This document shows, piece after piece, positions 1 to 40,563 of a stretch of DNA of 64,000 bases. Origin of the DNA: Pararhizobium sp. IMCC3301 (GTDB taxonomy: Bacteria > Pseudomonadota > Alphaproteobacteria > Rhizobiales > GCA-2746425); assembly GCF_030758315.1 (NCBI RefSeq), contig NZ_CP132336.1:3005001-3069000 (forward strand). The letters run 5' to 3'. The translations under genes were made by a program, and so were the position numbers. The number at the start of each line of letters is the position of its first letter. Position 1 is the stretch's first letter. The notes beneath the pieces were generated by a model. It saw nothing but the letters and a program-made list of their open reading frames with translations. It had not been told where the DNA came from and ran no database searches.

Positions 1-870
1 ATTCTTGCCCGTCATGATTATCCAAAACCGGTTGCCAGGCTGCTGGGTCAGGCGGCGGCTCTGACCGTGATGCTGGCAGCGTCGATAAAACTCGAAGGCC
101 GGCTGATCCTGCAGGCCCAGACCGATGGTCCGGTTTCGCTGCTGGTGGTTGATATGCGTGCCCCCGGCGATTATCGGGCGACCGCCAGTTTTGACGCCGA
201 CCGCGTCGCCGAGCTGGAAGACGCCGACGCTGGCGCATTGCTGGGCAGCGGAACCCTGGCTCTGACCATTGATCAGGGTCAGTATATGAACCGCTATCAG
301 GGTTATGTGGAATTGAATGGCGGGTCTCTGGAAGACGCCGCCCATGATTATTTCATCCGCTCCGAGCAGATCCCGACACGGATTCGTCTTGCCGTTTCCG
401 AATTAATCACCCGCACTGAAACCGGCGAGGCGACCCACGCCTGGCAGGCCAGCGGCGTGATGATCCAGTTTCTGCCTCATGCCTCCGACCGGCTGGTGCA
501 GAAAGATCTGCCGGCTGGCGGCATCGCGGATGAGGATTACCACGCTTCCCAGCCGGAAGACGATGATTCCTGGGTAGAAGCTCAGGCTCTCATCGACACA
601 TTGCAGGAAAACGAACTGGCCGATCCTGACCTGTCGGCAGAACGACTGCTGTTCCGCCTGTTTCATGAACGCGGCGTTCGCGTCTATGATGCTATGAGTG
701 TGCAGGACAAATGTTCCTGCAATGCCGCCAAGGTCGGCGGCGTTCTGGGTCAGCTCAGCCGCGAGGAACTGGTTGAAAGCATTGCGCAAAGCGGCCAGAT
801 CGAAGTCACATGCGAATTCTGCGCCCGCAAATATGACTTTGATCCGAACCGGCTGCTGAAACAGTCCTGA
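1..870 (+). CDS. hslO: Hsp33 redox-regulated chaperone, 5' truncated by the window edge
   Basis: The reading frame is already open at base 1, so the N-terminus lies outside the window; the first internal ATG is at 70. Hsp33 is a cytosolic holdase chaperone activated by oxidation, which releases zinc from a C-terminal four-cysteine centre. That centre is visible as a C-x-C pair (CSC, near base 715) followed by a C-x-x-C pair (CEFC, near base 820) just before the stop. The upstream part matches the family's N-terminal substrate-binding domain. Identification is strong because both cysteine pairs and their spacing fit. The next gene, maeB, is on the opposite strand. Confidence 0.95.
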   Translation: MLARHDYPKPVARLLGQAAALTVMLAASIKLEGRLILQAQTDGPVSLLVVDMRAPGDYRATASFDADRVAELEDADAGALLGSGTLALTIDQGQYMNRYQGYVELNGGSLEDAAHDYFIRSEQIPTRIRLAVSELITRTETGEATHAWQASGVMIQFLPHASDRLVQKDLPAGGIADEDYHASQPEDDDSWVEAQALIDTLQENELADPDLSAERLLFRLFHERGVRVYDAMSVQDKCSCNAAKVGGVLGQLSREELVESIAQSGQIEVTCEFCARKYDFDPNRLLKQS

Positions 871-37173: not shown

Positions 37174-37250
37174 GCACCGGTAGCTCAGCTGGATAGAGCA
37201 CCAGACTACGAATCTGGGGGCCGAGGGTTCGAATCCTTCCCGGTGCACCA
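37174..37250 (+). tRNA. tRNA-Arg (anticodon ACG)
   Basis: A 77-base cloverleaf including an encoded CCA. The acceptor arms are gcaccgg and ccggtgc, the D arm includes gctcagctggatagagc, the anticodon stem is ccaga/tctgg around loop ctacgaa with ACG at 37208-37210, and the T loop is ttcgaat. Its 3' end is the edge of a direct repeat that recurs at 40323, marking an integration site. Confidence 0.96.
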
Positions 37251-37270
37251 TTTCCCCATGTCCGACCCGG
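37240..37270. repeat. Putative attL: tRNA-Arg 3' end direct repeat
   Basis: Eighteen bases, ccggtgcaccatttcccc (37240-37257), are identical to 40323-40340. A further 13 bases (atgtccgacccgg, 37258-37270) match 40343-40355 after a 2-base gap. Repeats containing a tRNA 3' end are the usual footprint of site-specific integration. Confidence 0.85.
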
Positions 37271-37317
37271 AGAGATAGGTACCATCTTTGATTGGTCCTT
37301 CAGGCTGGCTGCAGCCA

Positions 37318-37857
37318 TCATTCGGGCACCCGATCAAACAAGGTTGTGACATTGACGACAATCATTGAGGAATAGCGCTCGGAGTGTGGGTTGCTTTTAA
37401 CTTCCTCGTTAGTGTCAACAAAGCCAAGAAGGGACAATAGCCGTCTGGGATCATCGGACATATTGAGGATAGTGCCCTCATCTGCGTTAGAAGCGACATT
37501 GAGATAGACGTCTCGCGCACCTTCCTTGACTATCTGCCAGTGCTCAAGATCCTTGTTGGTCTCAAGCCAATCACCAAAGCCTATATCTTCTAGAAATACA
37601 GCCGGAACGCCCAAGCGAACCAGCTCTTCCAGAATAACGGCTTTGTAAAACTCATCCTCATCGTAGACACGACTGACACCAGTACCTGTGGCTTTGGGAC
37701 CATCCGTGCGAAGAAAATCAAGCGCGGTCCAATGATGGAATTGCCGTATCATTTTAGAGAGTGCGGCATCGTCGCCATCAGGGACCAAAATGACGGGAAA
37801 ATGTTTGACAGACATGAATAAGTGTTTGGAGATAATTACACCGATAGGGCAAGACAT
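37318..37857 (-). CDS. Island-borne protein of unknown function
   Basis: A 179-residue, acidic, apparently soluble protein with no signal or membrane segment. I do not recognise it. Met15 (37815, MSVKHF) may be the real start; neither start has a good ribosome site. It is about 370 bases downstream of the reverse transcriptase gene on the same strand. Whether it works with the reverse transcriptase is unknown. Confidence 0.55.
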   Translation of the reverse strand: MSCPIGVIISKHLFMSVKHFPVILVPDGDDAALSKMIRQFHHWTALDFLRTDGPKATGTGVSRVYDEDEFYKAVILEELVRLGVPAVFLEDIGFGDWLETNKDLEHWQIVKEGARDVYLNVASNADEGTILNMSDDPRRLLSLLGFVDTNEEVKSNPHSERYSSMIVVNVTTLFDRVPE

Positions 37858-38226: not shown

Positions 38227-39792
38227 TTAATAGTCAAAAGCGTCAAAGAGAATTGATATGTCGAATGAGGAATCGTAGCCCGGCGCTTGAACACCTTCGA
38301 GACCAAACGTAAAAAAGTGCTTTCTCGCTGCGCGCCAGCCGCGAACTAAACTAGGAAAAACTACCTCTACGGCACTATCTGCACTATCTTCTTCACGCCA
38401 AGCAGATGGCGCAATCCAGTTTCCTAGAATTAGTTGTTGGTTTGATGGTGTTGGGCAATTGCGTCGATACCTGTCTCGTAAAATTCGCCTGCGTGCCACA
38501 GAAGCCCGCCGCACCATGTTTACTGTCCAGCCGTCGAGCGCCTTAAGAACAGATGGGTCTTCGATCAGACAGTAAAAGCCCATAAGACCGCGCATTTTCT
38601 TGAGCCGCCCGCCATGGTATAAAAATTCCTGAATATCTTGTTCTTTAAGCCCACCATAAAACCCCCTGCGAAGCTCATAGATCAGCCCTAACAAATCCCA
38701 ATCGTAGCCGTGCCGCCTATTGGCTCTGCTCCGATCAAATCCGTGTTTCAGGGAATTTATCAAATAGATATTGGCCAGCCGAGAAACCTTTTGTTCAAGT
38801 TTTTTCTTGGTCTTTTCTGGTAGCGTAAGCCCAGCGTCTTTGAATCCGTAGCCCAAATAAGTGAAGTCGTTTATTGTGCGAATTTCATGCTGGTAGTCTG
38901 AAATTACAGAAATCCCCGGCGACTTTTTTCGATTGACGATTAGACCGCTTTCAGAGCAGTGGCGGTCGAAACATCGCTCAAGCCGCTGTGCGTCTTCATA
39001 ACTTCCGCAGATTGCAACCACGTCATCCGCAAATCTGACAAACTTGCCAGCCTCGACAGATAGTTTTCGGTCAAGATCATGATTTGCAAGGTTGGCCAGT
39101 ACCAAAGATGCTGAAGAACCTTGAGGCGTTCCCTTGACCTTGCGTTTAAACATCGAAGTCCTGTGTGCCTCTGCATCACCCAAGCGGTGATGAAGGAATG
39201 CTTCAAAGATATGTCGCTCATGAGGTGTAAGGCTAACCGTGGAGCGATCGGCAATTTTCTTTTTCAAGTAATTTGCTGGTATGTTGTCAAAGTACCTTTC
39301 AAAGTCAATTTGAACAGCAAATAGCTTACCATCTTTATCGAAGTCTCTTAGCGCCAAAATCGCATCAAACACGTTCTTGTCAGGATGATAGGCATACGAG
39401 TGTGGTGAGAGTCGCTTCTTATTTCTGTTTAATGTTCTTCGGAAAATTACGTTTGCTAGTGCTGCATCAGGAATTCCAAACGCGGTAATTTCCCGATTTG
39501 ACCCATCTGGCTTAGGTATTAGAAATCTAAGCGCGGGCTCAGGATCGTATTCGTAGCGAAGGACTTTGTGCCAAATTGCTGTAGCAATAACATTTGCATT
39601 TCGTTTGCAATGTCGCGGATCAAAGTGCCGATGCAAAAACGTTCGAGATTTATTGGAAGGAAGCGCAGCTTCAACTCCCGTGCGGCGCTTGAACTTTTCG
39701 CGGTATTTCGCTTCTTTCTCAGCCTTGGTTCGTTCTTTTTGAAAGGCCTTTTTGCTCAAGCGTTTGATTTCTTGTCGTAATTCATTGCGCAT
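38227..39792 (-). CDS. Reverse transcriptase, non-canonical (retron-like or DRT/UG type)
   Basis: A 521-residue protein with the RT motifs in order: PKPDGSNREI (about 93-102), motif A VQIDFERYFDNI with D163, TPQGSS (222-227) and motif C F-A-D-D (254-257). About 35 basic residues precede the RT fold, and a C-terminal region of roughly 180 residues follows, with no recognisable maturase or endonuclease domain. The FTYLGYGF segment after motif C is unlike the VTG-containing region of classical retron RTs. A structured RNA lies 19 bases upstream. No group II intron RNA or DGR template repeat is visible. A defence-type RT is the best guess, class unassigned. Confidence 0.85.
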   Translation of the reverse strand: MRNELRQEIKRLSKKAFQKERTKAEKEAKYREKFKRRTGVEAALPSNKSRTFLHRHFDPRHCKRNANVIATAIWHKVLRYEYDPEPALRFLIPKPDGSNREITAFGIPDAALANVIFRRTLNRNKKRLSPHSYAYHPDKNVFDAILALRDFDKDGKLFAVQIDFERYFDNIPANYLKKKIADRSTVSLTPHERHIFEAFLHHRLGDAEAHRTSMFKRKVKGTPQGSSASLVLANLANHDLDRKLSVEAGKFVRFADDVVAICGSYEDAQRLERCFDRHCSESGLIVNRKKSPGISVISDYQHEIRTINDFTYLGYGFKDAGLTLPEKTKKKLEQKVSRLANIYLINSLKHGFDRSRANRRHGYDWDLLGLIYELRRGFYGGLKEQDIQEFLYHGGRLKKMRGLMGFYCLIEDPSVLKALDGWTVNMVRRASVARRRILRDRYRRNCPTPSNQQLILGNWIAPSAWREEDSADSAVEVVFPSLVRGWRAARKHFFTFGLEGVQAPGYDSSFDISILFDAFDY

Positions 39793-39811
39793 AATATCTC
39801 ATTCAAAAATC

Positions 39812-39953
39812 GGTGGGGCGCATAGAGTAAGGGGATACGGCGACTCAAGGTCCCCGATACCATCCAGTAAGTCTTTCGACCCACTGTCGCCAAATCAGTT
39901 TCCCAAAAAGGACGTCTTCAACCCCATAAGGGCCGGGTAGGTCGCGCCCCACC
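39812..39953 (-). ncRNA. Structured RNA candidate immediately upstream of the reverse transcriptase
   Basis: A 142-base segment bounded by a perfect 10-base inverted repeat (ggtggggcgc at 39812-39821, gcgccccacc at 39944-39953). Inside, ggcgac (39839-39844) pairs with gtcgcc (39886-39891). Nested against that is an 8-bp hairpin at 39866-39885 whose minus-strand loop is a GAAA tetraloop. The position, just 5' of the RT start, is where retron and some DRT non-coding RNAs lie, and terminal repeats like these resemble retron a1/a2. Transcription and true ends are unproven. Confidence 0.55.
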
Positions 39954-40322
39954 TAGGCTCCACGCCATCATCTATTAAAAGGCAAATTTGTTTGCGAGAG
40001 TCAACTTAGAACTGTGAAGGCATAGGACCTAACGCGGTTTAGATGAATTTCAGCTATTTCCGGTCAAAAGCTACAACTAGGTATCTGTAAGGCAGGCCTG
40101 CTTCTTGTTTACTATATCAAAATCCGACAGAGTTGATTTGATCCGCCATTCTTCAACCGCCAATATGTGAAGACTGACATGCTTATAGAATAAGCCTAAC
40201 GCATTTCAAATTTCACCGATCGCAAAAACCGCAGAATTCTCCTCGTGGCGGGAATATTGTTAACCCGTCGCAATATTCAGAATGAAATCACTACCACAAA
40301 CATGTTCCCACCATCATCCCCG
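39954..40322. other. Gene-free AT-rich end of the island
   Basis: No open frame with coding character. This should hold the promoter for the RNA/reverse transcriptase unit on the minus strand. I cannot single out a convincing promoter. Confidence 0.4.
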
Positions 40323-40355
40323 CCGGTGCACCATTTCCCCAAATGTCCGACCCGG
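40323..40355. repeat. Putative attR: second copy of the tRNA-Arg 3' end
   Basis: Matches 37240-37270 at 31 positions with a 2-base insertion (aa after tttcccc). Only the last 11 bases of the tRNA are present, so it is not a second tRNA gene. It marks the right edge of the island; the ATPase gene beyond it is chromosomal or belongs to another insertion. Confidence 0.82.
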
Positions 40356-40563
40356 AATCGGTGACCCAAGTCACACTTCACCACCGGCAACTGCGCCCAT
40401 GATTCCCGATGCACGTGCAACTGCGCCACTCTGGCAGCGTCCCCGGCTTGACGCCTGTTTTCTGGTGCGCGAGGATGATGCGGGCGTACCGGGTGCTGGA
40501 ATTTGAGGGTTGTGTTGCGAATGAACCAGCGGCAATCGCCTCGGCCCGGAGGGATTGAGCCGT

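What the first reader, a model, noticed from the sequence alone, without database searches (positions are those of the whole stretch)
38227..39953. Reverse transcriptase with a tightly structured upstream RNA: candidate retron-like or DRT-type defence system
Seen: a 521-residue RT with F-A-D-D motif and a long C-terminal extension; 19 bases upstream, a 142-base segment closed by a perfect 10-bp inverted repeat, containing a GGCGAC/GTCGCC stem and an 8-bp hairpin with a GAAA tetraloop. Known: retron and several DRT systems place a ncRNA directly 5' of the RT; retron ncRNA ends are paired a1/a2 repeats. The RT lacks the retron VTG-type region, so it may be an uncommon class.
Basis: partly seen in the sequence, partly recalled or inferred. 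Interest (0 to 1): 0.88.

Follow-up and report, generated by a model that had tools for sequence, protein, structure and literature searches.

The report
DRT9-type defence RT with CUCU template
This is a bacterial anti-phage reverse transcriptase of the DRT9 family with its own structured guide RNA, but where all published DRT9 RNAs carry a run of U that makes the enzyme spool out pure poly-A DNA, this one and its nearest relatives carry CUCU, so they should make a repetitive, probably alternating A-G, DNA instead.

Summary
In detail: an intact 521-aa reverse transcriptase (38227-39792, -) preceded by a structured RNA of about 160 nt (39809-39967, -). The RT belongs to the DRT9/UG28 family, not the retrons: PADLOC Drt9 E=1.2e-151, and the six best PDB fold matches are all DRT9 cryo-EM structures. 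The RNA is conserved. Eight related loci show strong covariation, and a covariance model built from them found an independent ninth copy (E=4e-21).

The unexpected part is the template. Published DRT9 RNAs are said to have a 'universally conserved' poly-U tract (UUUU after CUUAC) that templates poly-dA. In this alphaproteobacterial clade the same unpaired position reads CCC(U/G)ACUCU. It is the most conserved 10-nt stretch of the RNA. CUCU is present in the window and all other intact copies of its subclade; one deeper relative has CUUU. By DRT9/DRT10/DRT3a realignment logic this predicts tandem-repeat cDNA, most simply (dA-dG)n, instead of poly-dA. These RTs also carry a C-terminal tail ending in Tyr.

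The system sits in a 3.1-kb low-GC island between att-like repeats at tRNA-Arg, without a recombinase. Defence, transcription, cDNA sequence and priming residue are inferred, not shown. Verdict: a new variant of a known kind (DRT9).

The parts
38227..39792 (-). DRT9/UG28-family reverse transcriptase, 521 aa
   Evidence: ORF; PADLOC Drt9 1.2e-151 over residues 1-507; fold matches 9vma, 9vku, 9nlv, 9ioa, 9nlx
39022..39033 (-). catalytic F-A-D-D (residues 254-257); YADD in canonical DRT9
   Evidence: alignments A1 and A4
38275..38277 (-). Tyr506, candidate priming tyrosine (aligned with Tyr496 of E. coli/Salmonella DRT9 by MAFFT)
   Evidence: inference
38230..38232 (-). Tyr521, C-terminal residue of the clade-specific tail ...LFDAFDY, second candidate priming tyrosine (FDY resembles YDY of canonical DRT9)
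   Evidence: inference
39809..39967 (-). DRT9-like ncRNA (5' end inferred from conserved TGGCG and upstream TTGAC; 3' end not determined)
39944..39953 (-). closing helix P1, 5' strand GGUGGGGCGC
39812..39821 (-). closing helix P1, 3' strand GCGCCCCACC
39919..39935 (-). stem-loop 2 (CGGCCC..GGGUUG), covarying
   Evidence: helix 4
39888..39914 (-). stem-loop 3, covarying across the clade (weak in the window copy)
   Evidence: helix 5
39865..39886 (-). stem-loop 4, 9 bp with GAAA loop; 95% of cells paired, 6 of 8 pairs with double changes
   Evidence: helix 6
39834..39861 (-). stem-loop 5, only in the window/L037/L038 subgroup
   Evidence: helix 8
39824..39833 (-). unpaired template motif CCCUUACUCU; CUCU = 39824-39827, at the place of UUUU in canonical DRT9
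   Evidence: most conserved 10-nt window of the RNA
39999..40004 (-). putative -35 element TTGACT of the ncRNA promoter
   Evidence: TTGA 35-38 nt upstream of TGGCG in 9 of 9 homologues; not found by the generic scan
37233..37271 (+). att-like repeat, 3' end of tRNA-Arg and following bases
40316..40356 (+). second att-like repeat
37318..37857 (-). 179-aa ORF of unknown family on the same island; homologue (78% nt) on the island of congener G913

Best explanation
An anti-phage system of the DRT9 (UG28) family. The ncRNA is transcribed from a promoter at about 40004, folds into a closed multi-hairpin scaffold and binds the RT. The unpaired loop just before the 3' strand of the closing helix is the template. 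Synthesis is primed by a C-terminal tyrosine of the RT, and the short template is copied repeatedly by dissociation and realignment. In canonical DRT9 this template is UUUU and the product poly-dA. Here it is CUCU (two adjacent CU units), so the enzyme should add AG, slip back two bases and repeat, giving long alternating (dA-dG)n attached to the RT. Product accumulation on phage infection should cause abortive infection. Shown here: family membership of the RT, the RNA structure, and replacement of the U tract by a conserved CUCU. Inferred: transcription, priming, product sequence, phage trigger and defence.
For: RT: Drt9 profile 503.8 bits, next best 109.5. Top six PDB fold matches are DRT9; VIA-align Z 27.7 to 9vma over 454 residues, including the long N-terminal helix typical of DRT9. 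RNA: covariation and an out-of-sample copy in L056 found with the covariance model at E=4.2e-21. Template: in canonical DRT9 relatives the loop is CUUAC-UUUU (L018, L029, L008) or UUAA-UUUU (L013, L028), at the place shown by mutation and structure to template poly-dA in SenDRT9 (PMC12483538). In window, L037, L038, L006, L014, L015/16/17 and L056 the same anchor CU(U/G)AC is followed by UCU, giving CUCU in every intact copy. It is the most conserved 10-nt window (0.92 pairwise identity against 0.61 for other unpaired columns). L006, L014, L015, L016 and L017 hold no run of 4 or more U at all. Precedents: U4>A4 reprograms SenDRT9 to poly-dT; 2-nt A/A' homology occurs in natural DRT10 systems and removal of B is tolerated (PMC12632851); DRT3a uses ACACAC for poly(dT-dG) (PMC13174585).
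Against: No cDNA, RNA or phage data. U4>C4 and U4>G4 mutants of SenDRT9 failed to bind RNA or to polymerise, so C in the template position is not tolerated by every DRT9 RT. The loop also holds period-4 (CU-KA-CU) and period-6 patterns and an invariant CCC that could template other products. L011, a deeper relative, has CUUU. Which tyrosine primes is unresolved, and the AlphaFold tail is below pLDDT 50. The CUCU copies descend from one ancestor, so the change is one evolutionary event kept by conservation. The canonical comparison set held here is small (five loci).
Confidence: 0.58

Rival explanations
1. An ordinary DRT9 that still makes poly-dA, using another U tract or tolerating C in the template.
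For: The RT is a full-length Drt9 match. The window RNA has U5 runs in stem-loop 3 and after the closing helix. L011 keeps CUUU.
Against: The U runs are not conserved: five members have none of 4 or more U, and in L011 the U6 run is paired (P unpaired 0.01). CUCU is the most conserved segment. Deleting one U of the SenDRT9 template abolishes defence.
Confidence: 0.15
2. Same architecture, but the repeat unit is longer: A-B-A' with A = CU and B = UA/GA, or unit CUKACU, giving tetra- or hexanucleotide repeats as in DRT10.
For: CU(U/G)ACU and its CU/CU homology is present in all members. DRT10 uses such A-B-A' patterns with 2-nt homology.
Against: The same CUUACU occurs in canonical DRT9 (E. coli L018, L008, L029), whose product is poly-dA, so there it is not the repeat unit.
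Confidence: 0.17
3. Poly-dG from the invariant CCC of the loop.
For: CCC is invariant in the clade and absent from canonical DRT9.
Against: It lies 5' of the CUUAC anchor, where canonical DRT9 does not template. C4 RNA did not co-purify with SenDRT9 RT.
Confidence: 0.04
4. Retron, or RT with a non-defence role (group II intron-like, DGR).
For: 5' structured RNA with paired ends; generic RT matches.
Against: Profile, fold and tree all place it with DRT9. NCBIfam group II (127.9 against 300) and retron (37 against 235) models are below cut-off. Rfam finds only the tRNA in the window, no intron RNA.
Confidence: 0.02

Closest known systems
DRT9 / UG28 (SenDRT9, E. coli DRT9; PMC12483538, PMC12489045)
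   Same: Full-length RT homology and fold including the N-terminal helix; upstream multi-hairpin ncRNA ending in an unpaired template loop next to a closing helix; conserved CU(U/G)AC anchor; C-terminal tyrosines; latch residues K98/R104 conserved (K94/R100 here)
   Different: Template UCU/CUCU instead of UUUU; FADD instead of YADD; R140 of the lock loop is His; Tyr25 of the N-terminal helix not conserved; about 14-residue extra C-terminal tail ending in Tyr; an insertion of about 15 residues in the fingers/palm; no terminator-like SL6; 28-29% identity to E. coli DRT9
DRT10 / UG17 (PMC12632851)
   Same: Short-homology realignment of a small template loop would give tandem repeats
   Different: RT only distantly related (profile 81.5 bits against 503.8 for Drt9); no SLATT partner here
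DRT3a (PMC13174585)
   Same: Dinucleotide-repeat RNA template at the analogous loop (ACACAC, giving poly(dT-dG))
   Different: DRT3 needs a second RT (DRT3b); none here; different RT family (Drt3a 57.5 bits)
Thioclava sp. plasmid (L012) and G842 (L035) DRT9-like RTs with SLATT
   Same: Sister group in the RT tree
   Different: SLATT partner present; R1 model does not match their upstream DNA; template not resolved

Membership tests
DRT9 (UG28) | RT of the Drt9/UG28 sequence family | tested here: met
   PADLOC Drt9 E=1.2e-151 over the whole length; placed with DRT9 RTs in the trees
DRT9 (UG28) | DRT9 fold with long N-terminal helix and C-terminal extension | tested here: met
   Foldseek ranks 1-6 are DRT9 structures; VIA-align Z 27.7, 454 residues; helix 2-38
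DRT9 (UG28) | ncRNA immediately upstream of the RT with conserved stem-loops and an unpaired template loop | tested here: met
   (structure and covariation); binding to the RT not tested
DRT9 (UG28) | universally conserved poly-U template (UUUU) | tested here: not met
   CUCU in the window and in all intact members of its subclade
DRT9 (UG28) | two conserved C-terminal tyrosines that prime synthesis | tested here: inconclusive
   Y506 and Y521 present, but YDY itself is not; clade-specific tail
DRT9 (UG28) | poly-dA product, hexamer assembly, abortive infection | not testable with these tools
   needs experiments
Retron | retron-type RT | tested here: not met
   NCBIfam retron models far below cut-off; Drt9 is the best PADLOC family by about 394 bits
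Retron | msr-msd RNA with a branching guanosine and msDNA | not testable with these tools
   no Rfam match at gathering score in the region; msDNA needs experiment
DRT10 (UG17) | UG17 RT with SLATT partner | tested here: not met
   UG17 profile 1.4e-23 against Drt9 1.2e-151; no adjacent ORF resembling SLATT
Group II intron RT | maturase RT with intron RNA | tested here: not met
   TIGR04416 127.9 bits against cut-off 300; no intron RNA in Rfam scan

The most novel reading that the evidence does not exclude
A DRT9 subfamily has switched its RNA template from poly-U to a CU repeat and makes kilobase-scale alternating poly(dA-dG), covalently tethered to the RT, as the abortive-infection product. 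The product sequence of class-2 DRTs would then evolve by template changes inside one RT family, possibly together with the C-terminal priming tail.
Probability: 0.5. Interest if true: 0.75.

Novelty: new variant of a known kind. Interest (0 to 1): 0.62.

Why it matters
Published work calls the DRT9 poly-U template 'universally conserved', and it remains open why poly-dA kills the cell. A natural DRT9 clade with a conserved non-U template makes that question testable: if it defends with (AG)n, toxicity cannot depend on poly-dA as such (dATP drain, or proteins such as H-NS/StpA that bind it). It also offers a naturally reprogrammed repeat-synthesising reverse transcriptase that sits between homopolymer (DRT9) and tandem-repeat (DRT10, DRT3a, telomerase-like) synthesis.

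Tried and rejected
Rfam scan: only tRNA-Arg in the window. Genome contigs peptide scan returned only distant Gram-positive RTs. Phage records hold no full-length relative; plasmids hold only Thioclava and Hymenobacter. AlphaFold model with 8 sequences: the C-terminal tail is below pLDDT 50, so the distance from Y506/Y521 to FADD could not be judged. Generic promoter scan did not list the TTGACT site. Covariance model R1 did not match canonical DRT9 loci or L012/L035, so RNA homology to those rests on position and anchor motif, not on a model hit. L012 has CUUACUUU 3' of its best 10-bp helix, and L035 has CCCUGACU in a small hairpin loop; neither template could be assigned. A first tree with L053 used a wrong ORF and was redone with the right one. 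U5 in stem-loop 3 was considered as template and rejected as not conserved. The 'GGCGAC/GTCGCC stem' was considered and judged unlikely.

Full report
OBSERVATION. The RT ORF lies exactly at 38227-39792 on the minus strand (521 aa), and the 10-bp inverted repeat 39944-39953/39812-39821 is perfect. A single-sequence fold is only modestly unusual (z -2.35), so the RNA had to be judged by comparison.

WHAT THE RT IS. PADLOC's Drt9 model matches residues 1-507 at E=1.2e-151 (503.8 bits); the next family scores 109.5 bits. NCBIfam retron and group II intron models are below their cut-offs. The best PDB sequence match by far is DRT9 (9ioa, 3e-53). An AlphaFold2 model (mean pLDDT 69.6) has six DRT9 chains as its best Foldseek matches and Z 27.7 to substrate-bound DRT9, 9vma. 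It has the long N-terminal helix described as specific to DRT9 (PMC12489045). Of the residues tested in that paper, K98 and R104 are conserved (K94, R100). R140 is His136, and Tyr25 has no equivalent.

RELATIVES. Searches of genomes and IMG/VR gave close relatives L037, L038 (86% and 85% identical to the window protein), L056 (59%), L006, L014, L015, L016, L017, a degenerate L020, and the split gene L010/L011. An ML tree puts them in one clade (100/100), with the SLATT-associated L012/L035 as sister and canonical DRT9 (E. coli L018, L008, L009, L013, L028, L029) on the other side. With a UG17 outgroup the topology holds, but the root between the two sides has only 81% support. Copies are rare: a few per several hundred genomes sampled. 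The host genome is probably alphaproteobacterial: its Asd protein is 80% identical to rhizobial ones; the record itself is unnamed.

THE RNA. Minimum-energy folds computed one sequence at a time give the same layout in all members: a small 5' hairpin, closing helix, stem-loops 2-4 (plus a fifth in the window subgroup), then an unpaired stretch directly before the 3' strand of the closing helix. On the alignment of eight, 87.8% of cells pair, 20 pairs show changes on both sides, and the covariation score is 0.419 against 0.217 in shuffles and at most 0.118 in slid controls. The structure was derived from these same sequences, which favours it somewhat. The independent test is L056, fetched after the model was built: it matches model R1 at E=4.2e-21. 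A TTGA box lies 35-38 nt upstream of the conserved 5' TGGCG in 9 of 9 loci, which suggests the promoter and the transcription start; there are no transcription data.

THE TEMPLATE. In SenDRT9 the unpaired U4 (nt 123-126) templates poly-dA. It lies about 8 A from the active site, deletion of one U abolishes defence, and U4>A4 switches the product to poly-dT (PMC12483538). The papers call this poly-U tract universally conserved. In the canonical relatives held here the motif is CUUAC-UUUU (L018, L029, L008) or UUAA-UUUU (L013, L028). In the window clade the same unpaired position reads CCCUUACUCU or CCCUGACUCU. This is the most conserved 10-nt window of the whole RNA (mean pairwise identity 0.92; other unpaired columns 0.61, paired columns 0.64). 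CUCU occurs in every intact copy of the subclade, including the out-of-sample L056; L011, a deeper branch, has CUUU. No other U run is conserved: five members have none of 4 or more U.

MECHANISM (inferred). DRT10 repeats arise by A-B-A' realignment, natural A/A' homology can be 2 nt, and B can be removed (PMC12632851). DRT3a makes poly(dT-dG) from ACACAC at the analogous loop (PMC13174585). CUCU is therefore a minimal A-A' template that would yield (AG)n. Period-4 and period-6 alternatives exist, but CUUACU is also present in canonical DRT9 that makes poly-dA, so I rank them lower. Priming is probably by a C-terminal tyrosine. Y506 aligns with Y496 of E. coli DRT9, but all full-length CUCU copies also carry an extra tail that ends in Tyr (FDY, FEY or FGY), resembling the YDY end of L008. 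L010, whose upstream RNA (L011) has CUUU, lacks that tail; this is one event and only suggestive. The trigger and the killing step are taken over from DRT9 by analogy.

CONTEXT. The system lies in a 3.08-kb low-GC segment (GC 0.43-0.50 against 0.55-0.65 around it) between imperfect 40-bp repeats, the first being the 3' end of tRNA-Arg. No recombinase is present. In a congener, G913, the same tRNA carries a larger island with a serine recombinase and a homologue of the 179-aa ORF but no RT; in three other congeners the segment downstream of the tRNA shows no match. It looks like an integration site with exchangeable cargo; mobilisation in trans is a guess.

LIMITS. No expression, cDNA or phage data; canonical comparison set small; the literature library lacks subscription papers and supplements were not read, so a report of non-U DRT9 templates elsewhere cannot be excluded.

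Noticed in passing
37233-37271 and 40316-40356: Imperfect 40-bp direct repeat, the first copy covering the 3' end of tRNA-Arg, bounding a 3.08-kb low-GC island that carries the RT, its ncRNA and a 179-aa ORF but no recombinase.
   Followed up: yes
L049 2273-11992 (genome G913): The same tRNA-Arg site in a congener holds a 9.6-kb island with a large serine recombinase (PF00239/PF07508), a homologue of the 179-aa ORF and a 2072-aa beta-helix/NosD-repeat protein, without RT.
   Followed up: partly
37318-37857 (-): 179-aa island ORF without Pfam, PADLOC or NCBIfam match; by eye it has a segment that could be a MerR-like helix-turn-helix (untested).
   Followed up: partly
L012 4001-6131 and L035 1123-3268: DRT9-like RTs with an overlapping or adjacent SLATT gene (RTasSLATT 1e-18 and 6.7e-25); their upstream RNA does not match model R1 and the template could not be assigned.
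   Followed up: partly
L020 1723-3384: Degenerate prophage copy: 5' half of the ncRNA missing and the reading frame disturbed at the catalytic FADD, while CCCUGACUCU is kept.
   Followed up: partly
L018 and L019 2583-4181: RefSeq annotates the E. coli DRT9 RT with a start about 33 codons too early, so the annotated gene overlaps the template part of its ncRNA.
   Followed up: no
L010 1-1302 and L011 1501-2054 (genome G499): DRT9-like gene split across two contig ends, with CUUU at the template position and without the C-terminal FDY tail.
   Followed up: partly
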